Shown: in pieces, positions 5,159-52,474 of the stretch
How positions within the stretch are numbered: position 1 is the stretch's first letter
How the letters are laid out: every line of letters starts with the position of its first letter
Assembly: GCF_008831285.2 (NCBI RefSeq)
Contig: NC_045148.1
Coordinates: 5,394,001 to 5,458,000, forward strand
Direction of reading: 5' to 3'
Length of the DNA stretch: 64,000 nt
Source of the DNA: Nymphaea colorata
Lineage: Eukaryota; Streptophyta; Magnoliopsida; Nymphaeales; Nymphaeaceae
Made by a program: the position numbers and the translations under genes
Notes under the pieces: generated by a model
Seen by the model: only the letters and a program-made list of their open reading frames with translations
The model's database searches: none
Told to the model about the DNA's origin: nothing

Positions 5159-6011
5159 TGTTAAGAAATATGATTTCTTATTGTTGTTATCTCTTAATTA
5201 GGTATTATCTTAGTTAAGAGTTAGTTTAGGATTAGTTAGGAATTAGTTTAGGATTTAGTTTATTTCTTTTTTTTCTCTTTATTTTTTATTTTTTTATTAT
5301 TTCTGCCAAACTAGCCGTTGGCAGTTCCAACAGCTCTATTAAGAGCTGTTGGAACTAGCCCAACTGCTAGTTTAGCTCATCTCTTCTTATTCTCTCTTAT
5401 AAATATCCTTGTAACAGTCTTTGTAAAGGATGAGTTGTGTTTTACAGCCTTTATATTGTTTATTGAATGAGTATTACTCTTCTTCACTTGGCCTTAGTGC
5501 CTTTTTGGTATTATATATAACAACCCGACCCACTCCCGGGCTCGGGCCTCTGGTTCGACGGATCCCAACCCGCCCCTTAACAGTTTCGGTTCCAATCCTA
5601 AAAAGGCTAGGAACCAGGACAATCATCTCATTAAAGCCTCCATTTATAAACCCTTGAAGATTCCTCACAATCTTCAATACGAGACTAAACTTTTGGGGTG
5701 TTACAATCCACCCCCCTTAAGGTACACGCGTCCACGCGTGTGGGACCCCAGGTCCGAGTGTTGAACCGGCTCTGATACCACTATAACAACCCGACCCACT
5801 CCCGGGCTCGGGCCCCTGGTTCGACGGATCCCAACCCGCCCCCTAACAGTTTCGGTTCCAATCCTAAAAAGGCTAGGAACCAGGACAATCATCTCATTAA
5901 AGCCTCCATTTATAAACCCTTGAAGATCCCTCACAATCTTCAATACGGGACTAAACTTTTGGGGTGTTACATTATATGTATTCTTTGTGACTGTTATAGT
6001 CACTTTTCACA
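5159..6011 (+). repeat. Solo LTR inserted in Copia element 2, carrying a TRIM
   Basis: The block starts TGTTAAGAAATATG and ends CACTTTTCACA. It is flanked by the 5-bp direct repeat GTCTC (5154-5158 and 6012-6016). Removing it restores the integrase reading of element 2 around a His-Glu-Thr-Ser-Cys-Ser-Tyr motif. Without the nested TRIM and its duplication, the LTR is about 392 bp. A TATA-like TATAAATA follows CTCTCTTA near 5398, which suggests plus orientation. No internal region is present, so it is a solo LTR left by LTR-LTR recombination. Confidence 0.87.
5516..5971 (-). mobile_element. TRIM: 456-bp miniature LTR retrotransposon
   Basis: Two nearly identical 190-bp direct repeats (5516-5705 and 5782-5971) flank only 76 bp. 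The element is flanked by the direct repeat TTATA (5511-5515 and 5972-5976). Read on the minus strand, the LTR starts TGTAACACCCC and ends GTTGTTATA. Directly after the 5' LTR comes G then TGGTATCAGAGC, the primer-binding site for initiator tRNA-Met. Directly before the 3' LTR is TTAAGGGGGGTGGAT, a polypurine tract. The LTR contains TTTATAAATGG, a likely TATA box. The repeats differ at only a few positions (for example 5543, 5576, 5664), so insertion is fairly recent. Apparent open frames across it are chance. It is non-autonomous and lies within the solo LTR. Confidence 0.92.
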
Positions 6012-32454: not shown

Positions 32455-33309
32455 ATGAAATCCAACGTCCTCTTCAAACGTGTGTGGAAGGACAACTTGG
32501 AGGAGGAGATGAGTATCATCAAGGGCTTCCTCCCCAGTCACCAATTCGTCTCCTTGACCACTCGCCTTCTTCGATGCCGCGATAGAGTCCCTCCCGCCAA
32601 CGACTGGGGTGACATCGATGTCAACTACGCCACGCTCCGCCTGATTGGCGACAACTATAAGAGCATGGTGCAGGTCGGCCTTGCCTTCTCGGACAAGCAA
32701 GGGATGCTGCCGAGATGCCCAGTAACAAAGCGGCCCTGCGTGTGGGAGTTCAACCTCATGGCGGTGGACGACGCCGGCAACGGCCGTGAAGCGGCGGATC
32801 TATCGGAGGAGGAGGAGCGATTCTTGCAGGAATGCTGCAGTGGTACCACGGGCGAGAGGCTGCGGAGGGAGGGGATCCATCCGGGATTCTTTGCCGTTGA
32901 GTTGTGGCAGTGCGCGGTGCTCATGCAGGATCACATCTGCTGGGTGGTGTTCAAAGGCGGTCTCGACTTCGTGGCGCTGCTTCGGTGGGTGAGGCACAGC
33001 GTCCAGAGCCTACCGGCCGACCGGGCGGAATTCTTGAAGCTGCTGCTTCTGTACTTCCCGCTCTTCTACGACCTGGCTGCACTGATGGGTCTGCACGACC
33101 AGTGGAACGACGGGACGATCGGGGGTCTGGGGAGGTCGGTGAACATGGAGAGGGAGGGTGAGCCTCCGCACGGAGCGGCGGCCGACTGCCTGCTGGCCAT
33201 GCGCATCTTCACAGCGTTGATGAAGTTAAAGCTTAGCACTGCGCTGCTGGAATATGCCGTGACGGCGGTCTTTGGGGTCAGCGAGGAAGGACTTGACGAC
33301 GACTCTTGA
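32455..33309 (+). CDS. CAF1-like protein A (presumed inactive deadenylase)
   Basis: An intronless frame of 284 codons from ATG 32455 (CGCCATGA context). It matches the CAF1/POP2 family (270-280 residues in plants, the CCR4-NOT deadenylase subunit) along its whole length: VWKDNLEEEMSIIK at the N-terminus, MVQVGLAFSDKQGMLPRC, CVWEFNL, GIHPGFFAVEL, WVVFKGGLDF, YFPLFYDLAAL and GAAADCLLAMR. In active CAF1 the first motif is Asp-Thr-Glu; here the aligned residues are Thr35-Thr36-Arg37, so two of four Mg ligands are lost. Asp171, Asp244 and His239 remain. The His of the FHSGYDF motif is Lys167. It is GC-rich compared with its flanks and lacks the C-terminal tail of genes C-E. An active enzyme is unlikely; an intact frame suggests it still makes protein. 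Confidence 0.92.
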   Translation: MKSNVLFKRVWKDNLEEEMSIIKGFLPSHQFVSLTTRLLRCRDRVPPANDWGDIDVNYATLRLIGDNYKSMVQVGLAFSDKQGMLPRCPVTKRPCVWEFNLMAVDDAGNGREAADLSEEEERFLQECCSGTTGERLRREGIHPGFFAVELWQCAVLMQDHICWVVFKGGLDFVALLRWVRHSVQSLPADRAEFLKLLLLYFPLFYDLAALMGLHDQWNDGTIGGLGRSVNMEREGEPPHGAAADCLLAMRIFTALMKLKLSTALLEYAVTAVFGVSEEGLDDDS

Positions 33310-33881
33310 TCATGAATCTCCATTATTGTTCATCGCCCACCGTCTCGCTCATTGGCGGTCCGGCCCTTTCCTTGTATCTTTTTCCGTCTGCAGCTCCTCT
33401 GGTGTTGGTGTTTCTGTTTGTCTTTCGATATCTTCTGATACAAATTGAACCTTGCTAAGAACGATGGTGGTGGTGTATTAGTTAGATTTACACGTCGTGC
33501 AGATTGTATTTCTCTCTTTTGGTGGTTTTTGTGATGATCATTTGAACTCTTTGAATGTTCCTCTTGTCTGGCTTGTAAATGATTTTGGATTCTTGATGAA
33601 GAAGAAGTTGGTTTCCTGTGATCGGTTGCAATTTGTCTGCTATATCATAGGCTATTCCTGCATACTATCAGCTAACCATGAGTCTTTCTTGAAGAGTAGA
33701 GCGAGAGAGATCTAAAGGCTTTTGTATTTAGTTCGAAACGGATCTAGACCTGCTATGAATTAGAGGTGTACTACGTCTAAAAGAGATGATATCAAACTCC
33801 ACAAAAAGACATGCAATATAGCAATTCTATATCGAATATTAAAATGCTTTTTACATTCTTTCAAGTAGCCTGTTTACCAAG
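33310..33881. other. Spacer between CAF1-like genes A and B
   Basis: Contains the presumed 3' UTR of gene A. No further gene seen. Confidence 0.5.
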
Positions 33882-34103
33882 GTACGATAGTAAGGCAAAA
33901 CGGATCCGAACTGTAATGAGACTCTTATGCATTATATAAGGTTGTGGCTTATATGGTATTTGGATTTGAGCCTGAAATTCCACATTTTCCATATTTATCC
34001 TAATTGTACATAAAATCAACTTGGATCTTGCCTTTGTTGGTTCCTCATTAGATTTCAAAATTTCAAGCTTCAATTCAATTAAATATGAGTCTGACTCCGA
34101 TCA
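33882..34103 (+). promoter_or_regulatory. Conserved upstream block, copy at gene B
   Basis: About 220 bp. The block matches 42466-42660 in inverse orientation, and it lies upstream of gene B and of gene D in the same direction relative to each gene. Shared phrases in gene-D plus-strand sense include AGACTCATATTT, AATTTTGAAATCTAA, GTGGAATTTCAGG (gene B) against ATGGAATTTCAGG (gene D), and ACCATATAAGCCACA. It ends about 135 bp before the ATG at 34238 and contains TTATATAAGG (33931-33940) on the plus strand. It may be a duplicated promoter or a MITE, since both ends carry an imperfect inverted TCAGACTCA. Confidence 0.65.
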
Positions 34104-34237
34104 AGAAAGATCCCAAACTGAATTATATGATATGTAAGCAATGGTTCGGATCTTCTGAACACTTGTTTACATCCAAGTCGCCCTCTCTCTCGCTCTCTCT
34201 CTGACATTCTTGCTTTCTTGAGTTGGTGGGAGCGGCC

Positions 34238-35086
34238 ATGGACGCTCCCGTTCGCATCAGGAGCGTGTGGGCAGACAACGTTCACCATGAGATCATAGCC
34301 ATCATCAAGCAGGCTGCCCTCTCCCATCCCTTCATCTCCCTCTCCATCAACCTCCTGCACAGCAACCGCAACCACCAACGCCGCGGCAGGATCCCTCCCG
34401 GCGCTTCCCCGGGCGACCCCAACGCCAACTACGCCACGCTCCGCGCCACCGTTGGTGCCTCCGTCCTCCAGGTGGGGCTCGCTCTCTCGGATGAAGGCGG
34501 CAACCTGCCGACGTGCGAGGACACGGGGCAGCCCTGCGCCTGGGAATTTAATCTCCGGGTGGTCGACCGCCGGACCGGCGAATTCGCGCCGTGGCAGCAC
34601 GGCGTCCTGCGGGCTTGCGCAGTCGATGCCGAGGAGAGCAAGAGGCGAGCAATCGATCCCTCGCACTTCAGCTTCAGCCTATTCGGAGCCAGCATCCTGA
34701 TGAGAAGCCGCATCCGCTGGGTCGTCTTCAAAGGCGGCCTGGACTTCGGGGGCCTCCTGAAGTTGCTTAGAGGAGAGGATCTGCCTCGGAAGCGCGACGA
34801 GTGGTTCCAGTGGCTACGGGCATACTTCCCGAGCTTCTACGACGTCATGCACCTGACCGCGCACCTGCGTCTCTCCCCAGCCGGAGGAGGCGGAAGCCTC
34901 GACGGCGTGGCGGAAACGATGGGCGTAGGGAGGGACGGGCAACATACCCAGGGCGCGGGGTCGGACAGCCTGCTGGTGCTGCGGGTGTTCTTGAAGATGA
35001 AGCAGGAAAGCTTCGGAGGCGGCTTCCTGGAGCACCTTCATGGCAACGTCCTCTTTGGTTTCTGCAAGAGCGGAGAGCATGTCTGA
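34238..35086 (+). CDS. CAF1-like protein B (presumed inactive deadenylase)
   Basis: An intronless frame of 282 codons. The start is ATG 34238 (GCGGCCATGG, strong context); the frame is open a little further but without an ATG. Of the five paralogues it keeps most of the canonical C-terminal half: DFGGLLKLLRGEDLP, YFPSFYDVMHL, a Gly-rich loop, and AGSDSLLVLR. The Asp-x-Glu of the first DEDD motif is replaced by Ser36-Ile37-Asn38. Asp169 and Asp243 remain. The conserved His five residues before the last Asp is Gln238, although a His lies at 236. FHSGYDF is FKGGLDF as in the other members. It is very GC-rich. It probably represents an earlier step of divergence than C-E. Catalytic loss is inferred from alignment by eye. 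Confidence 0.92.
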   Translation: MDAPVRIRSVWADNVHHEIIAIIKQAALSHPFISLSINLLHSNRNHQRRGRIPPGASPGDPNANYATLRATVGASVLQVGLALSDEGGNLPTCEDTGQPCAWEFNLRVVDRRTGEFAPWQHGVLRACAVDAEESKRRAIDPSHFSFSLFGASILMRSRIRWVVFKGGLDFGGLLKLLRGEDLPRKRDEWFQWLRAYFPSFYDVMHLTAHLRLSPAGGGGSLDGVAETMGVGRDGQHTQGAGSDSLLVLRVFLKMKQESFGGGFLEHLHGNVLFGFCKSGEHV

Positions 35087-36194
35087 TCGATCGCAGTCCT
35101 GTGAGGGATCTTCCTCTCTCCTTCATTGCCAGCTGGTGCAACTCATGTAACCTTTCGTGTTTTATCTCTCAATCTTTTCACCATGACGTCTAAGAACACT
35201 GACCTTCTGCGCTTGAATCTTGGTTTTCTTTCTTTTTCCCTTCCCGTCAGTTTGGATGAAGAAGTGTTGTGTTGTTCTTTTTATTCTAAAACAGAAACAA
35301 GATTTGATGAGCATCGCTTACACAAACCCTTACGTACAGATGATCGAAATCTTAGAATGGCTAGTTCATGCCAAGAGGTCCAATCGCCCGGTGTTGGAAG
35401 TTTACTTCGGAGCTTTAAGATCACCAAACCGTAGACATGCAAGAACAGAGCTCACATTAAGCCTTTTTTTATTCAAGATGATGACAAGAACGATGTAGAT
35501 CAAGAGCGACATTCATCCACTACTACTCCAAAATGATAACGTAATGAGGAAATGACTGTGCCTTGCACCTGATTGGGAGGCAAAGCAAATGGAATAATTG
35601 AGTGAAAATCATGGTAGATCGAATAAATAGTGTTAATAATTCTACACAGCAGATTGTTAAAAGATATGCATGAACTTTCCTGCATAACATGAAGGACCTA
35701 ATGTCTAATTCGCAGTTATTTAAAAATACTATTTATAATTTAAAATAAAATTTGGATTCAAATAGGTATGATGGGTAATTGAGTACAGATCATCTACGAC
35801 TCGCGCTCCCTACCGTACTGTCCTCGTTCCAATATGTCCTAAAAACGAAAAAGGAAAAATGGAGATGCACTTGCAATAGAACATATCGAATCATGACATC
35901 ATAAAGAAAGAGCCCGACTCAGCATTGAACCGTAATTTAAACTTTTTTAAATTTTTAGCTATTCAACAATATGGTTGTTCATTTGAATTATATATATATT
36001 GAATGGTAACTTCAACATTTTAAAGTTAGTTTTATCATGATAAGTGGTTAAAAAAAAAGTGATGGACATTTTTTGTCATTTAATATTAATTCACACTTTT
36101 TTCTTTTTGTTTTTTTTTCAACTATTCATTTGCAAATAAAAGACCCTGGTTAAATGTGTGTGCATATATATGTGTAAATATATATATAAAATTG
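35087..36194. other. Intergenic, no gene seen
   Basis: Contains the 3' flank of gene B and AT-rich sequence. The segment 36040-36110 (GTGATGGACATTTTTTGTCA) resembles the interior of the MITE at 62283-62496. Confidence 0.4.
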
Positions 36195-36420
36195 AGTGAA
36201 GATTCTAGCTACCAAGAATCACCAAGCTGTCTAACTAAGATAATCTATATAAAGCTGATGAAGGGTTGGGAGAAGAACAATGATAATAGTGTAAAATAAT
36301 GAAAAATGCCATCACTTTTTTTTTTTGCTTGGTTTTCTCTGTTTTTGCTTGTCTTTCTTTTAACTTTTCTCATGTTGGATTAAATTATCTTGGTTAAATG
36401 GTTGGATGATTTTGAAATAT
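36195..36420. mobile_element. MITE
   Basis: The left end, GAATCACCAAGCTGTCTAAC then TAAGATAATCT, is matched in inverse by the right end near 36372-36415 (AAATTATCTTGGTTAAATGG, TTGGATGATTTTGAAAT). The left end also matches the inverse right end of the MITE at 62283-62496 (GAATCACCTAGCCATCTAA), so the two belong to one family. Confidence 0.62.
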
Positions 36421-36693
36421 ATATATATATATATATATATGTGCACATCTTTTTTTCTTTTTTTTTTCCAAAGGGAAAGAATGGCGTTTTGTTTAGAAAG
36501 AGTCCATGAGGATGCACGCCTACTTAGAAAGGATTAAATTTGTCAGATGTAAAGGTCGAGTTAATCATCAACAGAATTATCATGTTTCGAGTAATGGTCG
36601 ACCATTATCTGTCAATACTGAGGAGGAAGAGTCATTCTGCCAAGACCATTTAGCATATTCGTAGGAGAGTGAGTTGGATGCCCGATGCATGCA

Positions 36694-36701
<8 letters not shown>

Positions 36702-36760
<59 letters not shown>

Positions 36761-36762
36761 TA
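36702..36762. repeat. (TA)n microsatellite
   Basis: About 30 TA units with one TG interruption. A shorter tract lies at 36417-36440. Confidence 0.96.
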
Positions 36763-37693
36763 GTGTGGTGGGTATTTTGGAAATTATTTAAAAAAAGATG
36801 TCCTTTTTAGTAATTTAACTTTTTAGAATTTCTTTTATTAATTAGGACGTTCTTTGTCATTAACTATATTAATGCATGAAAATTTGGGTGTATACAACCT
36901 GCTTTTTATTCTTAGAGGTTTTTCGAGTGTGTCTCATTAAGAAGCTGGAGAATTTTGGTACGCAAACACTTGAGCAACTAATAACGTTGTCAATAATGAT
37001 GAAATGATGGATAGCAAATTTAATACAGGGGGCCGACTCAGTTATGATTGGTAATGGCTCTCGGATTTCAACTAAGCGTATTGGTGATCTATCTATTCGT
37101 TTTAATGGCAGTTCTGTGAGAGGATTTGCATCGGATAATGACTGTGTTTTGAGTTATTCTTCGCCGACCAAAGATGCGTGACAGACTTTGAAGGGTTTAT
37201 GGGAAGGCATTGTAGGAGGGTCAGAAAGCTTTTAGTTGTTGTTTTCAAGTGATGAAGATTCGACTGCTTCACATGATATGTGGCATTGTTTCTGGTCATG
37301 CAAACAAAAAGTTTGTCACCTCTTTGAATTCTCATACTTTTGTTTGAGAAGATTTATGATTCGTGTCCAATAGAACAACCTTTCCCAATTAGAAGGCTAA
37401 AAGGAGAGGCGAAGCATTTATTGGAGCTTCACTGCCAAGTTTATGAATTACACAAGAAAAATGAAAAAAACAACTAAACTGACAAGCATACGAACAATCT
37501 GCACAATATAAGCAAAAATATGTTTCTCAAGCAAAGTTGAACCTTGGGTTTCAAAAGGGGTTGTTTGGCAAATAAAACACTTTACTTTATGAGTGTTAAG
37601 GCATATTTACAGATCGTCTATGCCTTAATCTTTGTAATAGATTGATAAAGATTCACAAATGTTCCAAATTAAAAGATGGGTAGAGGCTAATGA
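36763..37693. other. Intergenic, no gene seen
   Basis: AT-rich. Includes the presumed 3' UTR of gene C near 37693. No coding signature. Confidence 0.45.
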
Positions 37694-38560
37694 TCAAAAA
37701 GGTGCCATGTTGAATGTAGGCACGGCGTTAGCTTCTTGCTCGGAGGTGATGCCAAAGAGCACCCTCGCCTTCTTTTCCAGCAGGACGCAGCCCCTTTTTA
37801 GCATCTTCATCCGCACGAACATTTGCAACGCCAGCAGGCTGTCCGATGCCGCTCCATGAGGAGGCACGTCTTCTCTCCACACGTTAATCGCCCTGGCCGA
37901 GACGTCGATCGTCCCGTCGTCGGCCACCGGGTGAAAACCCATCACCGCTGCCATGTCGTAGAACACCGGGAAGTAAATAGCCAGCAGCCTAAAGAATTCC
38001 TTGCGCTCAACCGGCAAGCCCTGAGCGCCGTGCTTCTCCCACCTCAGCAGCGCCGCGAAATCCAGTCCGCCTTTGAACACCACCCAATTGATCTTGTCTT
38101 TCATGAGCAAGCTGCAGCGCCAGATCTCGGCGGCCATGCGTGCCGGCTGGATTCCCTGTCTCCTCAACTGCTCGGCGTTAACGTTGCCGCAGAACTGCTC
38201 CAAGAAACGATCCTCCCTTTCCGGATTAATGGCTGCTTCTTCCAGCGGCATGAGATTGAACTCCCATACGCAGGGCCTCCCGCTCTCGCTGCAGCGTGGC
38301 AGCCTCCCTAGTTTGTCACACAGGGCAACTCCCACCTGCGCTATGTTCCTGAACCTGTTGGTCGCCTGCTGGAGGCCGGAATAGTTGGTGTCAGAGTCGC
38401 CCCACCCGTTTCCCGTTGGGATCCTTTCTCCGCATAGCATAAGTCGGGTGGTGAGGGAGACGAAGGGGTGAGCTATCATGGCCCTCTCCCTGATTATGCT
38501 CATCTCCACGTCGAAGTTATCTTTCCAGACGTGTTTGACGACAACATTGTTGTTAGACAT
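37694..38560 (-). CDS. CAF1-like protein C (presumed inactive deadenylase)
   Basis: An intronless frame of 288 codons, ATG at 38560 (complement GCCGCCATGTC); the open frame further upstream lacks an ATG. CAF1 family landmarks are VWKDNFDVEMSIIRE, AQVGVALCDKLGRLPRC, CVWEFNLMPL, INWVVFKGGLDFAALLRW, YFPVFYDMAAVMGF and HGAASDSLLALQMF. The first catalytic motif Asp-x-Glu is Thr37-Thr38-Arg39. Asp167, His235 and Asp240 are kept. It is close to D and E throughout and shares with them a C-terminal tail (TSEQEANAVPTFNMAPF) that canonical CAF1 lacks. A TATA box sits about 100 bp upstream. The gene is convergent with gene B and in tandem with gene D, which lies 2.7 kb upstream of it. Confidence 0.93.
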   Translation of the reverse strand: MSNNNVVVKHVWKDNFDVEMSIIRERAMIAHPFVSLTTRLMLCGERIPTGNGWGDSDTNYSGLQQATNRFRNIAQVGVALCDKLGRLPRCSESGRPCVWEFNLMPLEEAAINPEREDRFLEQFCGNVNAEQLRRQGIQPARMAAEIWRCSLLMKDKINWVVFKGGLDFAALLRWEKHGAQGLPVERKEFFRLLAIYFPVFYDMAAVMGFHPVADDGTIDVSARAINVWREDVPPHGAASDSLLALQMFVRMKMLKRGCVLLEKKARVLFGITSEQEANAVPTFNMAPF

Positions 38561-38660
38561 GGCGGCTTTAATGATCTCGAGCAAACAGAACTATTCCAAC
38601 CCCTGTCGATCCGTCGTCAATGGAAGCTATACAACTTGCAGTGTTTTCTTCTTGTTTCCT

Positions 38661-38667
38661 CTTTATA
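38661..38667 (-). promoter_or_regulatory. TATA box of CAF1-like gene C
   Basis: The complement reads TTCTATAAAGAGG, about 100 bp upstream of the ATG at 38560. A start near 38632 would give a 5' UTR of about 70 nt. The spacer shares CTCGAGCA and a T-rich stretch with the spacer of gene D. Confidence 0.55.
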
Positions 38668-38670
38668 GAA

Positions 38671-41280
<2,610 letters not shown>

Positions 41281-42147
41281 TCAAAATGGAGCCATGTGAA
41301 ACGTAGGCACAGCTTTGGCTTCTTGTTCGGAGGTAACTCCAAAGAGCACCTTCGCCTTCTTCTCCAGCAGCTCGCAGCCCTTCTTCATCATCTTCATCCG
41401 CATGAACATGCGCAACGCCAGCAGGCTATCGGAGGCTGCTCCCTCAACAGGCTCGCACTCCCTCCACACGTTAATCGACCGCGCGGTGACGTCGATCGTC
41501 CCGTTGTCGTACACAGGGTGGAAACCGAGCACCGCAGCCATGTCGTAGAACAAGGGGAAGTAAAAAGCAAGCAGCCTAAAGAATTCCGCGTACTCGAGGG
41601 TTAAGCCCTCGGCCCCCTGCGTTTCCCATGACCTCATCAGCGCCATGAAGTCCAGCCCGCCTTTGAACACCACCCAACTTATCTTGCGCCTCATGAGCAA
41701 GCCGCAGTCACGCAAATCGGCGGCGAAGCGTGCCGGATGGATTCCTTCGCTCCTCAACTGCTCGGCGCTGACGTTGCTGCAGAACTTCTTCAAGAACCGC
41801 TCCTCCTTTGTGACATCGGGTTCAGCTTCCAGCGGCTTTAGGTTGAACTCCCACACACAGGGCTTCCCCGTCTCTTTGCAGAGCGGTAGCCTCCCTAGCT
41901 TGTCACACAAGGCAAGCCCCACCTGAACTACGTCCTTGAACCCGTTGACAGTCACCCGGAGTCCTATATAGTTGATGTCGGGGTTGCCCCAGGCTTTTCC
42001 GGCGGGGATTCTCTCTCTGCATAACAGAAGACGGGTGGTCAGGGAGACGAAAGGGTGATCGCTCATGGCTCTCTGCTTTACGATGTTCATCTCTGCGCGG
42101 AAATTCGATTCCCATACGCTTCTGATGACAACGCTGTCGTTGGACAT
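41281..42147 (-). CDS. CAF1-like protein D (presumed inactive deadenylase)
   Basis: An intronless frame of 288 codons, ATG at 42147, TGA at 41281-41283. CAF1 landmarks are VWESNFRAEMNIVKQ, VVQVGLALCDKLGRLPLC, CVWEFNLKPLEAE, ISWVVFKGGLDFMALMR, YFPLFYDMAAVLGF and GAASDSLLALRMF. The Asp-x-Glu is Thr37-Thr38-Arg39. Asp166 and Asp240 are kept, but the His five residues before the last Asp is Glu235, so it has lost three expected active-site residues. It carries the tail shared with C and E (TSEQEAKAVPTFHMAPF). A (TA)n tract replaces the expected TATA region 84 bp upstream, and a conserved block lies at 42466-42660. Confidence 0.93.
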   Translation of the reverse strand: MSNDSVVIRSVWESNFRAEMNIVKQRAMSDHPFVSLTTRLLLCRERIPAGKAWGNPDINYIGLRVTVNGFKDVVQVGLALCDKLGRLPLCKETGKPCVWEFNLKPLEAEPDVTKEERFLKKFCSNVSAEQLRSEGIHPARFAADLRDCGLLMRRKISWVVFKGGLDFMALMRSWETQGAEGLTLEYAEFFRLLAFYFPLFYDMAAVLGFHPVYDNGTIDVTARSINVWRECEPVEGAASDSLLALRMFMRMKMMKKGCELLEKKAKVLFGVTSEQEAKAVPTFHMAPF

Positions 42148-42226
42148 CGTGGGCTCTCGAGCAGATGCAGTGAGTGAGATTGGATCGATGCCGCCGTTCT
42201 TTGATTGCTTTTCTTTTTTTTGTAAT

Positions 42227-42230
<4 letters not shown>

Positions 42231-42319
<89 letters not shown>
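42231..42319. repeat. (TA)n tract in the promoter of gene D
   Basis: About 44 TA units, starting 84 bp upstream of the gene D ATG. In the paralogue gene C the TATA box lies about 100 bp upstream of the ATG, so the tract covers the equivalent position. Confidence 0.9.
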
Positions 42320-42322
<3 letters not shown>

Positions 42323-42465
42323 TCCGATTAGAAGCTTCTAGAATTCTTGATGTAATATTAGCAACCTGAAAGCTGTTCTTGATTTCTTGATTTCGGCCGA
42401 CGGCGACGTCGGTGGTTGCTGTGGCTGTGCAGAACGCATAGTGTTCATGGGTTATTTCTTAATTG

Positions 42466-42660
42466 GATTCAGACTCATATTTGAAATTGAGACTTAAAAT
42501 TTTGAAATCTAAAGAGGACATGGCAAAGGTAAGATCCAGGTTAATTTATATATAATATGGAATTTCAGGATCAAATCCGGATACCATATAAGCCACATAA
42601 TGCATCATACATTTGAGTCTGAGTACAATTCGTGTTTATTTTGCCTTACAGTATCGCATC
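42466..42660 (-). promoter_or_regulatory. Conserved upstream block, copy at gene D
   Basis: Partner of 33882-34103 (inverse in the window, same direction relative to the genes). Shared phrases include AGACTCATATTT, AATTTTGAAATCTAA, ACCATATAAGCCACA and CTTAC.GTATCG. It starts about 320 bp before the gene D ATG. Imperfect terminal inversions (TCAGACTCA) leave open a MITE origin. Confidence 0.65.
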
Positions 42661-42971
42661 ATAAAATGGATGTGGTTTAACTACATTTTATCTAGAGTAA
42701 AGTAAAGCATTTTTTATTGGGAAGATCGAACTATAGTTTCAAAATTTTAAAGAAGATTAAAATAAGATTTTCAAAACTTTTATATATGTTAAACTAATTT
42801 TTTTTGAAAGTTACATATAAATTTTTGAAAAAATCTGAGAGGGGGCCAAGGCCCCTCTGATTACATCTCCTTGCAAGTAATCTAGAGGCAATAACTGTGA
42901 AAACAGGGTTGATTCTTAGCCGTTTATTAGTGCTGGTCAAAGCGAAGCCTATTTGACCTTGAATTGCTTTG

Positions 42972-42973
<2 letters not shown>

Positions 42974-43013
<40 letters not shown>

Positions 43014-43034
43014 ATATATATATATCTATATATC
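42974..43034. repeat. (TA)n microsatellite
   Basis: About 30 TA units with TCTA interruptions near the right end. Confidence 0.96.
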
Positions 43035-46000
43035 TGTTTGCTCAAAGTTCATTTGGATCAATCATATGTGAGCCGGTGAATATCGAAAAGCTAAAGTTCT
43101 TGCATGGAATGAGCTCATGTTCGACGTCTAATTTTGATTTTTTTTTTTAAAATACATTAATTGTCGATTCAACTCAATGATTTTTTTATATGTCATAATT
43201 TAAAAACGCCGACCGTCATTTTGTCTAAGGACCAGGACCATTTGATGCTTCGTGTTGATTATATTTTGCTTAAATTTTGTGTCATGGACGCGATATATAA
43301 AATACGGGGTATGCAGGATTGATTGCTTTTTTACAAGATCAATATGTGGATGTTACTTGATCCCTTCAAGCTATCTGAAAAGGAAGCTTACAAGAAAACC
43401 ATTTTACAAAAAATACAAGTGGCAACTAGCTGACGGATATATTTAATTTAGGATGTTTTAATTTATAAAACATGTTACTTTTCAAATCTATAAGTTGGGC
43501 ATTTATATGATTTTAAAATCAATCGTCGGATTCCTTTTGGCTTAATTTTAAAATCCATCTTACATGTTCCCAAAACATAATTTTTATAATGTCAATTTAT
43601 GTTCTTTAATATATGCAGCATTTGCAAAAATATGAATTGCAGTGCGTAAAACAAGAGAGATGTATAAAATGGGACTGGATTTCAAGTATCTTTAATTTCC
43701 TCATCATGTTCTTGATCAGTCAGTGGCGTTTGATTATGATATTTTTAAAGATGCAATATCCAGCCACGATAATGTGAGAGCAGCCAATTAAGTACCAAAT
43801 AATCTTGGCATCTCAACGTCTGAGATCATTTTCTTTGAGTTCAAATGAACGGTCCCATTGACGAGCTGAGCTAAGGTGAACCAGTTGCGAGTTTGGCTTG
43901 TTTCCTTGCTAGATGTATGTTACAAATATCATTCATTTTATGCTAACTTATGGTAATTAGACAACTCGAATGAATTAATCTAAGAAGCATAACAAGTTGG
44001 ATAATTTTACATGCTTATTTACCAAGCTTTGATGCAGTTGGTGTGCGCAAATACGGTCAATGACAAAATGCTCCTGTTTGGATAGAAAGAACTTTTTTTT
44101 GTATAGACAAAAATAAATCCAAAAAGTGAAAGGACTCAAAAGGACAATTCTATTTCTGTAACTTTAAAAACTGCCCCCTTTTTTCTTTTGACGTATGATT
44201 GTTGCATGCACCGATGGCCGCACAAAACTCAAACTCATGCACTAAGGCCGGCCGGTGCACAGCACATGCCCGTGCACGTTACCACGTCTCGTCTTAATCG
44301 ACAGTATATCACATAACGCAAACCGTCTACCAAGCCTGTTTTACCATGTGAAGGATAAGAATGCTGGATAAATATTAACGCAAACCAGAAGCATCTTCTT
44401 TTGTTTTCTTTACTGTTAATGAGGTTTAGAGTGATGAGAGAGAACCTCTACCTCTAAAAAGGGGTTGCTCGGCATCAACAACACATTTGTTACTGTCTTA
44501 TGAATCTGTCATAAAGAATGAGACATATTCATGAAATACTTTTTAAAATGTTCAATCAATTTAATTAATTTTTAGTTAGGTGATCCGGACAGTAACATGA
44601 TGCTACTATTCCCAAGATGCTCCTAAAGTATTTTGGTCTGCCCATTTTCAGCGTTAATATGCAGGTGACACACTGTTGATCAGTTATTGAACAAAACTTA
44701 ATAACAGATTTGCACCAGAGATCTGAATTTATTTCAAAGTTGCAGTTATCATCCATCTTGAAAAGGGTTCACCTCAGTTGCATTTGTTTCAAAGTTCTGA
44801 ATTTATTAAAAAGTCTTTCTCATTAACATGTATTCATTTTTATCTCTTCCTGTAAAAAACCTTGGTAATCTTTTCCTTTTATTTAGCAAAAATTATCCGA
44901 TGGCCTATCGTATCATAATTTTTCTGTTACTTGAAATTTTTTATTTTTCAAAACAAGATTATTTTGTACTGTACGTTTATTAAAAGCATTTTACGGCTTG
45001 TGTTTTGTCCTTGATTGTATTAGAATCTAAATACATCGTTGTTATTATTCAATGAAGTCATATGGCTATTATATCTATGCAGTTTGATATTTTTTTATTG
45101 TTTTTTATAGTTTTTATTGAATTTTCCAAAACGCACCTAAGAAATTGGTAATAATGATAAAAAAAAAATACACATAACCCTTTTGCTGATATTGTCAAAA
45201 AGTCGCCTATGTTTTACACCTTTAATCAAAACAACCATTTAAACATTAATCTTAGTTAATTTGTTACTAACTTTTGCTCTGGTGAATATGATGATAAAGA
45301 CCATAACTTAAGCTCATCTAATAGTACTATTACATGATTAATTATATCTGAAGAACTTGTTTTTTCAGTATACTTCAAATATAAAGTTCCACAACGAAAG
45401 CTTTAACTTAGTAATAAAGTCAGACATGGATATTTTTCATGTTATTTTTAGAAGGTGAAAAGACAAGTTTTACTGTTTTAACAATTAAATTTTTTTTCAA
45501 AGATAATCTTATGAATGTGATTGAAGAACCAAACAGATGATTAGGTACTTTCTAGAAAATTTCTCATTTTTTGGTATATATATGTTTTCTTTTTTGCTCA
45601 TGAAACATAGACTTCAAAGCTTCAAGAGCTATATATGCTCCCTCAACGAGTACATCTATGCATGCCTCTCGTCACCTTAACTCCTCTTATGACATTCACC
45701 AGAGTAGACTACGTTAAAACTGAGTGTGGGTAGTTGGTACTTCGTAGTGAACTGATCAGTTAAGTCTATTTTAGTATATTAACCTTGAAAGATAGGAATA
45801 TGCAAGTAAACTACCCCAACCAACTGAAACCAAAATCAATCCTCAATACTTGTGTAGGTGACAACCGTAGTGTATGTCGGTGAGAGAGAGAGAGAGAGAG
45901 TAAGAGAGATTTTAAATGCTTCCATTTGGAGAAACAACAACTAGTTCTCGAAAATGAAGGCTGAAGCTCCAGTGCTGCTTCAAGATCTGGGTGAGCTTAT

Positions 46001-46486
46001 GGTCATACTGGTACAAGAGAATACAAGAGAATATAGTAGTAGGAATAGTTCAAAATCCATTGCTACTATTAAAAAAACGGACAACTCCCAGATAATAACA
46101 AATCAAATAATGAATGGATTGGCTCATTCTTAATAAAAGAAAAAAAAAATGTTTCGATTCACCCGTGTGACCCCCTCTTGCTTCACACACACAAAAAGAA
46201 AGGGTTCCCTCCTCCACGCTGCGAGGAAAGCGGATGACAGGGGTTCGTCCTCCGATGCAAGGAAGCCGAGATGGCTGGATGCCTGTGTGACCCACAACGA
46301 GCAGGGAAGGAAGCAGTAGGAGTTCTATTCTTTAGGTTTTCATCCCCGATGTGTTCTTTTGATTTTGCTCGAAGTTTTGCTGCCTCCCAGCCTGAGCAGC
46401 CGATAAAAGAAAGGAACCTTGCTATTTTATCTTCTGACAGACAGCAAGAGATCGACCCTCCACCGGAGCTGGTCACCCAACAGAAA
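43035..46486. other. Intergenic, no gene recognised
   Basis: 3.4 kb of AT-rich sequence with (GA)n at 45881-45901. The stretch 46140-46486 is less AT-rich and contains short open frames on both strands without a known domain; it abuts a CACTA-like terminus at 46487. Confidence 0.45.
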
Positions 46487-46520
46487 ACACTACACCAAAT
46501 TAGCCCTTAGATGACACTAT
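46487..46520 (+). mobile_element. Possible CACTA (En/Spm-type) transposon terminus
   Basis: CACTACACCAAATTAGCCC, followed by AGATGACACT, resembles the terminal inverted repeat of plant CACTA elements. The inverse end (ending GTAGTG) was not found in the next kilobase, so this would be a truncated or solo end. Confidence 0.35.
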
Positions 46521-47395
46521 GTTGCTGCTGTAACAGATGGACCACCACGTGTTATATCTCGGTGGGGCCAGGGCCCATAAGACTTGGGTTGCTGCCCTCA
46601 AGGTCGATTGAAAATTTGTTAATTATACATTTAGTCCCTCATAAAAAACAATTTCTGACTTCGCTCACTCGCCTCGGCGAGCTGCCTCCACAAGTTGATT
46701 GGGGAACCTCACCTTAGAGTGTCGGTGGAGAGAAAGGGGGCCTCCTCCACTCAAGGCCTTGTTTGTATTCTTCTGGGATGAACATGTACAATTTGCATTG
46801 CAAGAATTATTTAACATCTTTTACAGCCTTTTACTTAGCAAGGTGAAAAAAAAGTCCTCATAAGGTATGGGGGCTGTACCACCAGCATCAATCTAATAGT
46901 GTTTGTAGCTTAGCCATTCATGCTGTTTATTTAGATTTAGTGTTTTTGCTTCATCATGATCTGCAGTCCAAAATGAATATAGAAACTATTGAACTCAAGT
47001 TGGTTCTCCAATCAAGGAAAGTATTTGAGGTGCTTGCTAATTTCTAAGGCATTTTTTTTTTCATTTTTAATTTTTTTCCAGAGTCATGATCATTCGCTTG
47101 AGAATTGAAATATGTAGTGTGCTGTCTCAGGAACTGGATTTAGACATTAAATGAGTCATAGATGGCTGTAATATCATGCTTAATTTCTTGGTCTATTTTC
47201 CACTTAAAAGGTTTTACTTAGTTTTGTTTAGATCTCTGATTTTCTTCCTTACCAAAAAGGTTCTTTAGATTTTCATTGTCATGAACATAGACAGGTGTGA
47301 AGCTTTTTCTAGAATCATCCAAAAAGTTCTAGTGTCAGCCATTTAAGGAGTCTAAGACCGTTCTTTCTACTACTTGTCTAGTGTAGGAAACTATT

Positions 47396-47850
47396 GGCCA
47401 GCCCGGCCCGATCGGACCCGGGCCGGGAAAAATCTGGCCCGGGCCCAGCCCGGCCCGACTCCCCGCCCTCGGGCCTCCGTCTCCCGCTCCCCTCCCTCTC
47501 CACAGTCCGCCCCCACTCCCTGTCCCTGTCCCTCTCCGCTCCCTCTCTCTCTGCTCCCCCTCCCCCTCTCCTTCTCCCCTCTCCCTCTCCCGCTTCCCCT
47601 CCCCCTCTCCCTCTCCCTCTCCCGCTCCCCCTCTCCCTCTACTCCCTCTCCCTCTCCCTCCTCCTCCTCCGTCCCCCTCTCCCTCCCCATCCTCCACCTC
47701 CTCCGTCTCCCTCCGTCTCCCTCCCCCTCCCTCCTCCGTCTCCCTCCCCCTCTCCCTCCCCCTCCCCCTCCTCCTCCATCGGAGGGCGACGGGAGGGCGG
47801 GGAAAGGGAGAGGGGAGGGCGGCCCGGGCCCGGGCCGGGACGCTGAGGCC
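47396..47850. repeat. GC-rich insertion with a long polypyrimidine tract
   Basis: About 455 bp absent from the paralogous site near 55345. The ends are GGCCAGCCCGGCCCG on the left and, in inverse, GGCCTCAGCGTCCCGGCCCG on the right, an imperfect terminal inverted repeat. Between them, 47470-47780 is almost pure C/T (CCCTCTCC-type repeats) on the plus strand. Open frames on both strands encode only Ser/Pro/Leu or Gly/Arg/Glu repeats and are artefacts of composition. Confidence 0.85.
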
Positions 47851-47953
47851 TTTTCTTTTTTTAACAATGAAAATTAAATTTGAAAAGACTTTTTCTCTAT
47901 AATTTTATCCAAAATTATATATATATTGTCACTCCCTACATGGTCATCCTAGG

Positions 47954-47956
<3 letters not shown>

Positions 47957-48037
<81 letters not shown>

Positions 48038-48048
48038 AGAGAGAGAGG
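47957..48048. repeat. (TA)n(GA)n compound microsatellite
   Basis: About 22 TA units then about 15-20 GA units with small interruptions. The paralogous site in copy 2 is the tract where about 4.8 kb is inserted (55486 and 60501). Confidence 0.96.
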
Positions 48049-48554
48049 GAGTTGTACATTACATTAAGTCATTCATGCTTCTTATAGTGACAGTAGCACT
48101 AGCTAGCTGTTAGAAGTAGCAGTAGAGCAACAACTAGCTGCTTATGCGGCAGGTTCTTTTGTTATGAATTTATAAGTGGACTTTTCATAAGTGGGTGTTT
48201 GGTAGACATGGAAAAAATTACAAACTTTTCCCATATTAGTAAGAATTCTTCCTTTCAAATGCAACTAAAATTTTCGTCAATCCAAACTTGATTACAGAAA
48301 ATGTTGCAGGAGTGATATGAAGAATGACATTCAATTTCACTTGAAGGTCCTTCTGAATAGAATTGTTGAAGCTTCTGAAGGTCAGATAAGTCATATAAGG
48401 CCAGAGCAAGATCAGTGCAACTCCAAAATCCACATATAGAGATGTTTGGGGTCAATGACTAGATAGCCAGGGGCAAAGCCAAGGGGGGCCACATGGGCCC
48501 TAGCGCCACTTCAATGACTACAATTTCACCTTGGTCTTCCTCTCCATGCTGAAG

Positions 48555-48950
48555 ACATACTCCTTGGGTAATCGCTCCAAGGGAAGAATTATTCATGGGA
48601 AATCTTCAGAAAAGAACTAGAGCATGATGATTATTTGCATAATGCCCTTGTTGATTTATGCACAAAATGCAGTGATTTGGGATCAACATTGCAAGTGTTT
48701 GATGAAATGCCTAAAAAAAATATAGCCACATAGAATGCCTTGTCGCATGGATATTTTGTCCATGGAGATCTGATGGCATTTGCAGCGGTTGTTTTGACAC
48801 AATTCTTTAATGAAACATAGTCTCATAGAATATAATGCTTAGGTTGAGGCTGTTCGAACTTGCTAGATATCTCTTTGAAGTGCCTAGATGGGATTTGCTT
48901 TCGTGGAGAATGAGCTTCCAGCTACATCCATAGCAGCAGGCATCAAGGGA
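48555..48950 (+). pseudogene. PPR protein pseudogene, copy 1
   Basis: The frame with LHNALVDLCTKCSDLGSTLQ followed by VFDEMPKKNIAT, then a stop, then NALSHGYFVHGDL is typical of PLS-type pentatricopeptide repeats (35-residue RNA-binding helical repeats, usually in organelles). The Trp expected in the ATWNAL motif is TAG at 48731-48733. Further frameshifts and stops (near 48820) follow. No start codon or full repeat array is left. Its twin is at 61290-61690. Confidence 0.88.
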
Positions 48951-49720
48951 GGAGGCAGGTGTGGGCTAAGTGGGGCCAATTTCTCATAGATACCCAAAAA
49001 AGTTCTTATTTTCTTATTGATGTTCTAGAGCAATTTTTCTCATTTACATATTTGGTGGCCTTGAAAATTTTAAAATTTTATACCTATTGCCCCTTAACCA
49101 GAATCTTTCTGTCTCAACCCTTGGTAAGCATCTTTGGCGTTGGATCTCCTTCACAAGATGCAACTTTCTGGCGCCCATCCGGCGAGACCATGGCTAGTGT
49201 GCTCTCAAGTTTCTTTGCCTTATCCCTCATTGCTATCGTATGACATACATGAACAAATGAAATTGATTATTGCAACAAAAATTGATTAGAAAGAGCCAGT
49301 AGAGGTGATTCCCAGCAGCATTGGGCTTGCGTGCATGTGTTGGCACAGCGATGCCAGCAGAAATATTAGGCAGAAATGAAGACTCCATTTTGCAGATCAG
49401 GAAAGAACAACAAGGAAAGCAAAACATCACATTTGAATAAAAAAAGCAGCTCACATTCCATTGCAATTTCATAAATTCAAACAACCAAAGAATTCAAAGG
49501 AGTAATACAATTGCCCAACTTTCATTAAACCAACAAGAGGCAATCTAAAAAATCATCAAGGATTCATTTCTTATGTCTGATTCCAAGACTAAGAGTCAGC
49601 AGACAATCTAATAAACTTCAAAAGGAAAATCACTACTAATAGCTGCATTGTGCAACATATGCACTTGTTTGATGAGAAATATAACATATATTGATCTAAA
49701 ACTCATGATAATTGTGAAAG

Positions 49721-50304
49721 CAAATAAGCATATTGAAAATCATAATCCATTCTTACAATCGAAACAGCCAAAACAATTGAATCTTCAAAAAGAAAAAAGA
49801 ACTTGAGATGATCAATGGTTTCTTACAAATAGCTGTTGAGCCCACGAATGCATCTTTCTTACCTACCAAGGCAATACGACAGATTACAAATTGATTGTGA
49901 ATTAGCGAAGGCAAAAACTAATTACTCTCAATAAAGGCAAGGCAATAAGCTCCTTAAAGATTGTAACCAAAATATATCAATAATGACCTTGAAATGTTTA
50001 TATATCATAACAAGATACTGGGCACACATCCACTATAAGGGAAATAAGAAGAACCGGCTTGAACTGTGATTCACATAGGAGGTAGTTGCATGCTGTTAAT
50101 TTCATGGCAAAAAAATGATGCAGATTGCCTTGTATTTCCCAAAGGAGAACACACTTGACAGGGATGCTATCATTCTAATGTTACCACATGAGCTACCACC
50201 CCAGAATCAAGAGTTGATGATCTTTGAAGCTGATAATTGATTATCGGCTAAGATCCATATGGTAGAGAGCTATTGACGCCATAGCTTTGACACCATAAAG
50301 AAGC

Positions 50305-50343
<39 letters not shown>

Positions 50344-50695
50344 AAAGTGGTTCAATGTTTGTCTACAACCACTATCCTATCCTATCTTTTTTTTATAATT
50401 TTCAGTACTTTCTTTTTGAGAGAGGTTTCCACTATTTATATGATGGTGTACAACAAGAATGGTTTCCAACAGTGTTACATGGAGGATATGTTTAGTGTTT
50501 ATAGGAGCGAAAAATGAACCGTTGTGGGTTCCCAAGATCTCTGTTTGCAAAAAAGATAGTCGTAGAGTTTTCTTTTCTCTTGCTCTCATTGCCATTGTCA
50601 TTTAGGTGCATGAGTTGTGCGCACATTTTTGTGATTTTCTTGATTTCTTTTTATAATTCTAAGTTTGGTATCTGTCTCTCCATTGTGTGTATGAA

Positions 50696-50727
<32 letters not shown>

Positions 50728-50996
50728 AATCCAGAGAATAATTGATTATTGATTCCGCAGGGGCTTAACATAGTTGAATTTAAAAAGCCAAAAAGAATTA
50801 GACAAATGATTTGAAAAACATATAAAAGTTTTATCTACACATTAAATAATATCATGTTTTATAAATTAAAAATGTTTTATATAAAGATCACATGCATCCG
50901 TATGAGGCATTTTTTTGTGAAAAACGAGTATGGCTGCAATAGAACTAATTCCATGTGGTCCTTTCGTGCGTGCATGATGCTTATGTATGTGTGTTC

Positions 50997-51028
<32 letters not shown>

Positions 51029-51353
51029 CATTTTTTTCTTGCTTCGCTATTTGAGCCGGAAAGTGCAGGTATGTGTGAAGGAAGAAATAAGCTAGAGAAC
51101 CGATAGCAAAGCAGTGCTTTAACTCAGAAAGTTGTGAATAAAACATACTACATATAAGAATCAAAACAAAGCTTCACCCCACGTCCATCTTGCGTCTGAG
51201 TAATAACTTTTATCTACTAAAGAAGGGAAAATGTGATACTACTTGAATTCCTTCCACATTCACCTTATATATGGAATCCAATCTTATGTGTATTTGCTAT
51301 GCAAATCTAGTGTAATACATCAAATGATATAACTGATATCTTTTCTTTTTCTT
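49721..51353. other. Intergenic, no gene seen
   Basis: AT-rich sequence with (GA)n at 50308-50338 and short (GT)n(TA)n tracts at 50699-50727 and 50995-51028. No coding signature. Confidence 0.45.
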
Positions 51354-51361
51354 TATAAATA
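51354..51361 (+). promoter_or_regulatory. Possible TATA box of CAF1-like gene E
   Basis: TATAAATA preceded by a C/T-rich run, about 250 bp before the ATG at 51608. It would give a 5' UTR of about 220 nt with a CTCTCCCTCTCCC pyrimidine patch at 51482-51500. Confidence 0.35.
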
Positions 51362-51607
51362 TAATTCTTGATCTGTCAAAGATATCTGACAAGGATGGCA
51401 AGAAACGATTCTATAGAGATGGTTTGGATGGCAGGTAAGGAAGTAAGGGATGTGACTACAGTTATAGGATCTGTCGTTCCATCTCTCTCCCTCTCCCTTT
51501 CTCTCATAAAAGAAAACTGAGACGTCTACAGTTTTGCTGCAACTAAGATATTGTCTCCCTCTTTGCCTCTCTGCAAGATCATTCTTGCTTGACTGCATCA
51601 AGCCGCC

Positions 51608-52474
51608 ATGTCCAACAATAGCGTCATCATCAAGCGTGTCTGGAAAGACAATTTCGACGCCGAGATGAGAATCATCAGGGAAAGGACCATGATTGATCAT
51701 CCCTTCATTTCCCTCACCAGCCGTCTTCTGCTATGCAGTGGGAGGATCCCTATGGGAAATGAGTGGGGCAACTCGGACGTCAACTACGCATCTCTACTGC
51801 GGATGGACAACGTGTTCAAGAACATAGTGCAAGTGGGGGTTGCCTTGTGCGACAAACTAGGGAGGCTGCCACGCTGCAACGAGACCGGGAGGCCCTGCAT
51901 ATGGGAGTTCAACCTCATGCCGCTGGATGAATCAGCCAATAAACCTAAAATGATACGGAGCTTCTTGGACAACTTCTGCAGTGGGGTCAAAGTTGAGCAG
52001 TTGAGGAGCCAGGGAATCCATCCGGAACGCATGGCCGCCGAGCTCTGGCACTGTAGCTCGCTCATGAAGGAGAAGATCAGTTGGGTGGTTTTCAAAGGCG
52101 GACAGGACTTTGCCGCTCTGCTGAGGTGGACGAAACAAGGGGCTCAGGGCTTGCCGGTTGAGCAGAAGGAATTCTTTAAGCTGCTGGATCATTACTTCCC
52201 GATGTTCTACGACATGGCTGCGGTTATTGGCTTCGACCCGACGGCCGACGATGGAACAATCGACATCTCAGCCAAGTCAATTAATGTGGGGAGGGAGGAC
52301 GTACCTCCTTACGGAGCAGCGTCCGACAGCTTGCTGGCGTTGCAGATGTTCATGCGGATAAAGATGTCAAAAAAAGGCTCTGCGCTACTTGAGAAGAAGG
52401 CATGGGTGCTCTATGGCATCACATCTGAACGGGAAGCTAACGCTGTGCCTACATTTAACAACGCAGCTCTTTGA
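51608..52474 (+). CDS. CAF1-like protein E (presumed inactive deadenylase)
   Basis: An intronless frame of 288 codons from ATG 51608 (GCCGCCATGTC, as in gene C). CAF1 landmarks are VWKDNFDAEMRIIRE, IVQVGVALCDKLGRLPRC, CIWEFNLMPLDE, ISWVVFKGGQDFAALLRW, YFPMFYDMAAVIGF and GAASDSLLALQMF. The first motif Asp-x-Glu is Thr37-Ser38-Arg39. Asp167 and Asp240 are kept. The His before the last Asp is Tyr235, and the residue before Asp167 is Gln. The tail (TSEREANAVPTFNNAAL) matches C and D. It lies 9.5 kb from gene D, in opposite orientation to C and D, and is closest to gene C by eye. A full-length frame despite active-site loss suggests a maintained non-catalytic role. Confidence 0.93.
   Translation: MSNNSVIIKRVWKDNFDAEMRIIRERTMIDHPFISLTSRLLLCSGRIPMGNEWGNSDVNYASLLRMDNVFKNIVQVGVALCDKLGRLPRCNETGRPCIWEFNLMPLDESANKPKMIRSFLDNFCSGVKVEQLRSQGIHPERMAAELWHCSSLMKEKISWVVFKGGQDFAALLRWTKQGAQGLPVEQKEFFKLLDHYFPMFYDMAAVIGFDPTADDGTIDISAKSINVGREDVPPYGAASDSLLALQMFMRIKMSKKGSALLEKKAWVLYGITSEREANAVPTFNNAAL

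What the first reader, a model, noticed from the sequence alone, without database searches (positions are those of the whole stretch)
32455..52474. Array of five CAF1-like genes, all missing the Asp-x-Glu catalytic motif
Seen: five intact intronless frames of 282-288 codons within 20 kb (32455+, 34238+, 38560-, 42147-, 51608+), all aligning end to end with CAF1/POP2 deadenylases. Established: CAF1 is a DEDD exonuclease; in human CNOT7 the ligands are Asp40, Glu42, Asp161 and Asp230. Here the first pair is Thr-x-Arg (A, C, D, E) or Ser-x-Asn (B), while the later two Asp are kept in all. Inference: this is a family of pseudo-deadenylases kept as proteins, perhaps decoys or adaptors of the CCR4-NOT complex or silencers of an active CAF1. 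Five uniform losses without frame loss is hard to explain as decay.
Basis: partly seen in the sequence, partly recalled or inferred. Interest (0 to 1): 0.9.

Follow-up and report, generated by a model that had tools for sequence, protein, structure and literature searches.

The report
Water-lily family of dead CAF1 nucleases
A stretch of a water-lily chromosome carries a cluster of genes that look like the enzyme that trims messenger-RNA tails, but the cutting site is lost and rebuilt in the same way in all of them, so they are probably kept as non-cutting proteins with a new job.

Summary
Confirmed. Five intact intronless frames (282-288 codons) lie at the stated places in a water-lily genome (Nymphaea colorata, inferred) and match CAF1 by sequence profile and predicted fold. 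They belong to a larger clade: 20 proteins found in N. colorata, N. thermarum and Victoria cruziana, and 13 open frames in the window's genome, 12 on one contig. None of the 20 has Asp40 or Glu42 (human numbering); 20 of 20 keep Asp161 and 19 of 19 testable keep Asp230. At least seven intact DEDDh CAF1 genes remain in the genome. Older duplicates show dN/dS 0.21-0.56 and orthologues span Nymphaea and Victoria, so wholesale decay is unlikely; the youngest duplicates are not distinguishable from 1. The CCR4-NOT decoy reading is weakened: NOT1-contact positions are no better kept than average, and Glu138 and Met141 are lost in 20 of 20. Most likely these are CAF1-derived pseudonucleases holding RNA 3' ends or another ligand in a metal-free pocket. 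Binding, expression and function are untested.

The parts
32455..33309 (+). pseudo-CAF1 gene A, 284 aa; T-T-R in place of D-T-E; His225 kept
   Evidence: Victoria orthologue P0011 (80% identical)
34238..35086 (+). pseudo-CAF1 gene B, 282 aa; S-I-N in place of D-T-E; Gln at 225
   Evidence: orthologues P0016 (N. thermarum, 96%) and P0018 (Victoria, 85%), both also S-x-N
37694..38560 (-). pseudo-CAF1 gene C, 288 aa; T-T-R; His225 kept
41281..42147 (-). pseudo-CAF1 gene D, 288 aa; T-T-R; Glu at 225; Arg at NOT1-contact position 141
   Evidence: N. thermarum orthologue P0008 (91%)
51608..52474 (+). pseudo-CAF1 gene E, 288 aa; T-S-R; Tyr at 225
   Evidence: close duplicates at C11 4.689 Mb (L018) and 5.513 Mb (L017 = P0007)

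Best explanation
The five genes are members of a Nymphaeaceae clade of CAF1-derived pseudonucleases. One ancestral duplicate of a plant CAF1 lost the metal-binding Asp40 and Glu42 and fixed new residues in the same pocket: Lys at 157, Glu at 96, and a basic or polar residue at 42 (Arg in most). Asp161 and Asp230 were kept. It then multiplied, mostly on one contig. Shown: residue losses, CAF1 fold of two predicted models, single clade, orthologues in three species, constraint between older copies, intact CAF1 elsewhere in the genome. Inferred: Arg42 and Lys157 take the place of the two Mg2+ ions by pairing with Asp161 and Asp230; nuclease activity is therefore gone; the pocket still holds an RNA 3' end or another ligand, so the proteins act as non-cleaving binders, probably without canonical docking on NOT1. 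I put loss of nuclease activity at about 0.9 and the RNA-end-binder role on its own at about 0.4.
Against: No RNA binding, expression or protein evidence was available. The salt-bridge idea was not tested on coordinates, since the tools return none. B and its two orthologues have Asn at 42, so charge replacement is incomplete there. Ser112, placed to recognise the terminal base in human CAF1 (passages of PMC8216464), is lost in 18 of 18 testable rows, which argues against unchanged poly(A) recognition. Two of the four family-wide replacements, Leu99 and Gly158, also occur in catalytically intact CAF1 of the same genome (L010-L012), so only Glu96 and Lys157 are particular to the dead clade here. 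Young duplicates have dN/dS 0.64-2.15 with intervals that include 1. The C model's alignment held 18 canonical CAF1 rows of 35, which favours the CAF1 fold.
Confidence: 0.5

Rival explanations
1. Dominant-negative or scaffold subunits: the dead proteins enter CCR4-NOT in place of CAF1 and dampen deadenylation, or recruit CCR4 without cutting, much as has been proposed for yeast Pop2.
For: A catalytically dead POP2 (D53A+E55A) slows reporter mRNA decay in fly cells, and a POP2 that cannot bind NOT1 is also dominant negative (passages of PMC3510486). S. cerevisiae Pop2 has SEDQ instead of DEDD and may be mainly structural (passages of PMC4032980). The global fold is kept in the C model. Alanine at 138 (with T142A and E149A) was tolerated in human CAF1, Trp at 141 is untested, and 3 of 7 intact CAF1 of the same genome also have Trp at 141.
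Against: NOT1-contact columns are not preferentially kept (0.31 against 0.30). E138 and M141 are lost in 20 of 20, with Arg at 141 in D and P0008. The GVV stretch that touches CCR4's LRR is lost, but plant CCR4 reportedly lacks the LRR (passages of PMC8216464), so that point is uninformative.
Confidence: 0.22
2. Decaying duplicates of an ancient dead copy, kept open by chance and recent duplication.
For: Young pairs have dN/dS not distinguishable from 1 (E/L018 2.15, CI 0.80-9.09; E/L017 0.71; L018/L017 0.64; N12/N14 0.72; 1.708/1.705 Mb 0.68). One further match, C3:5548492, is only a 51-residue piece. Nymphaea-Victoria branches (A/P0011 about 0.24) are longer than Nymphaea-Nelumbo in canonical CAF1 (about 0.06).
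Against: 13 of 13 family genes in the genome have open frames, and 0 of 23 matches holds a stop. Older pairs have dN/dS 0.21-0.56 with upper limits of at most 0.75. B is 96% identical to its N. thermarum orthologue and 85% to Victoria's. Lys157, Glu96 and Asp161 are fixed across three species.
Confidence: 0.1
3. Fast-evolving decoys in a plant-pathogen conflict: they imitate CAF1 for a pathogen factor that targets CAF1, or hold foreign RNA.
For: Repeated local duplication and high dN/dS in young copies. Between E and L018, 14 of 26 amino-acid differences (18 of 30 nonsynonymous changes) fall in residues 48-73 and 105-124. Citrus CAF1 is reported to interact with bacterial PthA effectors (passages of PMC6640180).
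Against: The region was chosen after seeing the data; synonymous change is raised there too, so gene conversion is possible; dN>dS is not significant (E/L018 one-sided p 0.099 overall, 0.18 in the region). The difference lists of two other young pairs show no such cluster by eye; they were not tested. The pocket, not a surface, is what is fixed.
Confidence: 0.1
4. Still an active nuclease with altered metal chemistry.
For: S. cerevisiae Pop2, with Ser for the first Asp and Gln for the last, is reported active in vitro (passages of PMC4032980).
Against: Pop2 keeps the Glu of motif I; here it is Arg, Lys, His or Asn in 20 of 20, and His225 is also gone in 8 of 19.
Confidence: 0.05

Closest known systems
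CAF1/POP2/CNOT7 deadenylases (DEDDh, RNase D type)
   Same: Full-length profile similarity and predicted fold; Asp161, Asp230 and many core residues kept
   Different: Asp40 and Glu42 lost, His157 to Lys, His225 lost in 8 of 19, NOT1-contact residues Glu138 and Met141 lost; 27-34% identical to P0084, an intact CAF1 of the same genome
S. cerevisiae Pop2 (SEDQ)
   Same: A natural CAF1 with a degraded catalytic motif
   Different: Pop2 keeps the motif I Glu, is a core subunit of CCR4-NOT and is reported active in vitro; here the Glu is gone and the genes are duplicates beside intact CAF1 genes
DEDD-derived pseudonucleases Exuperantia, EXD1 and Maelstrom (animals)
   Same: Nuclease-derived proteins without activity; Exuperantia's EXO-like domain derives from a DEDD exonuclease and binds RNA
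   Different: Animal proteins of other lineages; Exuperantia has an added SAM-like domain (names and Exuperantia details from passages of PMC8097288 and PMC5597691; that EXD1 and Maelstrom are DEDD-derived is recalled)
Ssd1/Sts5 pseudonucleases of fungi (Dis3L2-derived)
   Same: Nuclease paralogues that lost the active site and act as RNA-binding proteins
   Different: RNase II family with N-terminal cold-shock domains (PMC8097288 passages); here a single-domain protein

Membership tests
CAF1/POP2 family by descent | Full-length profile similarity to CAF1 | tested here: met
   Profile to S. pombe Caf1 1.6e-40 and CNOT7 1.4e-33
CAF1/POP2 family by descent | Pfam PF04857 above curated cut-off | tested here: not met
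   0 of 5 window proteins above 24.2 bits; of five further clade members scanned one, P0012, passes with 31.1
CAF1/POP2 family by descent | CAF1-type RNase D fold | tested here: met
Active CAF1 deadenylase | DEDDh catalytic set D40, E42, D161, D230, H225 | tested here: not met
   D40 0/20, E42 0/20, D161 20/20, D230 19/19, H225 11/19
Active CAF1 deadenylase | Mg2+-dependent poly(A) cleavage | not testable with these tools
   needs recombinant protein
CCR4-NOT subunit | NOT1 MIF4G-binding surface (R28, A137, E138, M141, T142, L147, E149, N171, I184, L187, F188) | tested here: inconclusive
   E138 and M141 lost in 20 of 20; retention of the Nymphaea canonical residue 0.31 against 0.30 for all columns, nine representatives; binding itself not tested
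RNA-binding pseudonuclease | Catalytic set lost while frame and fold are kept under selection | tested here: met
   the young pairs are not distinguishable from neutral
RNA-binding pseudonuclease | RNA binding | not testable with these tools
   needs a binding assay

The most novel reading that the evidence does not exclude
A DEDD exonuclease site has been converted, once, into a metal-free pocket in which Arg42 and Lys157 stand in for the two Mg2+ ions on Asp161 and Asp230, giving a lineage-specific and expanding family of plant RNA 3'-end (or nucleotide) readers that work outside CCR4-NOT.
Probability: 0.25. Interest if true: 0.75.

Novelty: new variant of a known kind. Interest (0 to 1): 0.55.

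Why it matters
CAF1 is a core enzyme of mRNA decay in eukaryotes. A clade of water-lily paralogues that lost the metal site, fixed a different pocket and then multiplied is a natural test of what the CAF1 fold can do without catalysis. It also gives a clear charge-swap hypothesis (two Mg2+ replaced by Arg and Lys) that one crystal structure and one binding assay can settle.

Tried and rejected
Pfam CAF1 as the family test: below cut-off for all five, so profile search and fold were used. Retrocopies: copia pieces lie in the window, but the seven fetched intact CAF1 genes are also single open frames, so lack of introns says nothing; the E/L018 duplication includes flanking DNA, which points to DNA-level duplication there. 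Non-coding RNA (Rfam gathering scores) or tRNA in the window: none found. Positive selection in young copies: not significant. Ancestral CAF1 class: unresolved. Grouping with L010-L012 is not rejected (p-AU 0.112), grouping with L014/L015 is disfavoured (0.0355); L010-L012 share Gly158 and Leu99 with all, and Trp141 with some, rows of the dead clade. CCR4-LRR contact set: no different from average.

Distribution outside Nymphaeaceae: one search listed 15 proteins, every named one from Nymphaea or Victoria, but only 8000 candidates were scored and only relatives sharing 5-residue words are reached, so absence elsewhere is not shown. Of the 7183 hits only the best 120 were seen. The Pfam search of the genome gave 26 matches; I fetched the seven loci that cover 12 of them. 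The other 14 (C3 near 17.47 and 4.87 Mb, C7 near 16.70 Mb, C8 4.97 Mb), several with stops or exon-sized, were not examined, nor was C1:25964455. A genome search with P0084 did not complete.

Literature: the search nymphaea + ccr4-associated factor returned 0 papers. The listings (6 of 6; 10 of 598; 5 of 5; 8 of 33; 6 of 6; 4 of 4; 4 of 4; 6 of 15; 3 of 1918) show no title on a water-lily pseudo-CAF1. The library holds open-licence PMC papers only. Papers were seen as passages only.

Script faults: YN00 failed for 7 of 10 pairs; its ML ratios are 0.26-0.27 for C, D, E pairs and 0.04-0.30 for pairs with A or B. A hand-written Nei-Gojobori count with bootstrap followed. In one search the alignment differs and C/D comes out at 0.37 instead of 0.35; the L010-L012 control pairs were not computed because frame extraction failed and the script stopped. 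L023 and L024 overlap in the genome, so their flank match says nothing.
Full report

WHERE IT IS. The window is C11:5394001-5458000 of its assembly. Frames elsewhere in that assembly equal proteins named Nymphaea colorata: P0084, P0007, P0019. Protein searches found 15 further family members, in N. colorata, N. thermarum and Victoria cruziana. A search of the genome with C lists 23 matches, 0 of 23 with a stop inside. Twelve are family frames on C11: A-E, three more at 5.513, 5.521 and 5.531 Mb, and four at 4.689, 4.952, 1.705 and 1.708 Mb. Two pieces make one gene on C4 at 22.45 Mb (P0019). One is a 51-residue piece on C3. Seven are the intact CAF1 genes below, and one (C1:25964455) was not examined. 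Eight family genes lie within about 105 kb.

THE ACTIVE SITE. In CNOT7 numbering, on an alignment of 20 family proteins (11 N. colorata, 4 N. thermarum, 5 Victoria; related, not independent), Asp40 is lost in 20 of 20 (Thr, Ser, Ala, Asn) and Glu42 in 20 of 20 (Arg 13, Lys 2, His 2, Asn 3). Asp161 is kept in 20 of 20, Asp230 in 19 of 19 (one protein is truncated) and His225 in 11 of 19. Four columns invariant in ten canonical CAF1 are fixed to another residue in the whole family: Q96E, F99L, H157K, S158G. Of these, Leu99 and Gly158 are also found in three intact CAF1 of the same genome (L010-L012), so Glu96 and Lys157 are the ones particular to the dead clade. FKGGLDF is exact in 17 of 20 and one step away in the other three. 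His157 is described as conserved only in CAF1 enzymes and as possibly contacting the RNA backbone, and S112 as placed to recognise the terminal base (passages of PMC8216464); S112 is lost in 18 of 18 testable rows. The catalytic states hold in 13 of 13 genomic frames.

CONTROLS. 120 of 120 listed canonical plant CAF1 match D-x-E and FHxxYDF patterns and 119 of 120 a third motif; they are the top hits of a canonical bait and so alike by construction. Seven CAF1 genes fetched from the same genome, picked from the Pfam search for long open frames (12 of its 26 matches; 14 not examined), are intact DEDDh in 7 of 7.

CHARGE IDEA (inference). Canonical CAF1 balances four acids with two Mg2+. Here two acids are gone, two remain, and two basic residues (42 and 157) have appeared. 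Arg and Lys could stand where the metals stood, which would explain why Asp161 and Asp230 are not lost. Glu96, fixed along with Lys157, might be its partner instead. B and its orthologues have Asn at 42 and fit only half of this. No coordinates were available to measure it.

ONE LOSS, KEPT SINCE. The family is one clade with 100/100 support in three trees, with 20, 17 and 19 family rows, on a stem of 1.27-1.36 changes per column. The trees warn that long branches meet, but shared Glu96 and Lys157 also speak for one origin. Orthologue pairs cross Nymphaea and Victoria: A/P0011 80%, B/P0018 85%, C/P0006 80%, P0019/P0020 80%. The parent CAF1 class is open.

SELECTION. Older pairs have dN/dS 0.28 (C/E), 0.33 (D/E) and 0.35 (C/D), upper limits 0.40-0.52; pairs with A or B are 0.40-0.56, upper limits up to 0.75. 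Other older pairs are 0.21 (C/L017), 0.41 (C/4.952 Mb) and 0.53 (A/5.531 Mb). Similarity among C, D and E stops within 12 bases of the frame ends, and A, C and E share CCGCC before the ATG. Against this, young duplicates are not distinguishable from 1: E/L018 2.15 (0.80-9.09), E/L017 0.71 (0.43-1.34), L018/L017 0.64 (0.37-1.15), N12/N14 0.72 (0.44-1.30), 1.708/1.705 Mb 0.68 (0.42-1.12). Two canonical pairs give 0.07 and 0.24. So the clade is constrained over longer times, while fresh copies are relaxed or diversifying.

PARTNER SURFACES. The eleven NOT1-contact positions taken from passages of PMC3510486 keep the residue of Nymphaea CAF1 P0084 at 0.31 on average against 0.30 for all columns (nine representatives), and are more variable than most random sets (0.964 of sets lie at or below). 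E138 and M141 are lost in 20 of 20, and D and its N. thermarum orthologue have Arg at 141, which in human CAF1 is enough to abolish NOT1 binding. Alanine at 138, with T142A and E149A, was tolerated there, and Trp at 141 is untested and also occurs in three of the seven intact CAF1 of this genome. Binding to NOT1 is thus doubtful, not excluded.

MECHANISM. The best reading is a pseudonuclease that keeps the CAF1 fold and a conserved, rebuilt pocket and binds without cutting. Precedents are Exuperantia (a DEDD-derived domain that lost catalysis and binds RNA) and Ssd1; EXD1 and Maelstrom are named as pseudonucleases too (passages of PMC5597691 and PMC8097288). The counter-example is yeast Pop2 with SEDQ, reported active in vitro (passages of PMC4032980), but it keeps the motif I Glu that this family lacks.

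LIMITS. No expression or protein evidence. Search reach outside Nymphaeaceae is limited to relatives sharing short words. All function beyond loss of the catalytic set is inference.

Noticed in passing
L018 (G000:C11:4689347-4690201), L017 and window 51608-52474: Between E and L018, 14 of 26 amino-acid differences fall in residues 48-73 and 105-124; synonymous changes are raised there too, so gene conversion or local diversification is possible. The region was picked after seeing the data.
   Followed up: partly
L010, L011, L012 (C4 and C7): A divergent class of catalytically intact CAF1 in the same genome already has Trp at NOT1-contact position 141, Gly158 and Leu99, states shared with much of the dead clade.
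   Followed up: partly
27145-27603 +: Exon-like open frame matching DUF2921/transmembrane E3 ligase (PF11145, E 4.3e-41).
   Followed up: no
592-5197, 10131-10469, 19196-23651, 28259-29339: Pieces of Ty1/copia elements, some by Pfam and some by similarity to each other.
   Followed up: no
47475-47777: CT-rich low-complexity stretch that yields several spurious long frames on both strands.
   Followed up: no
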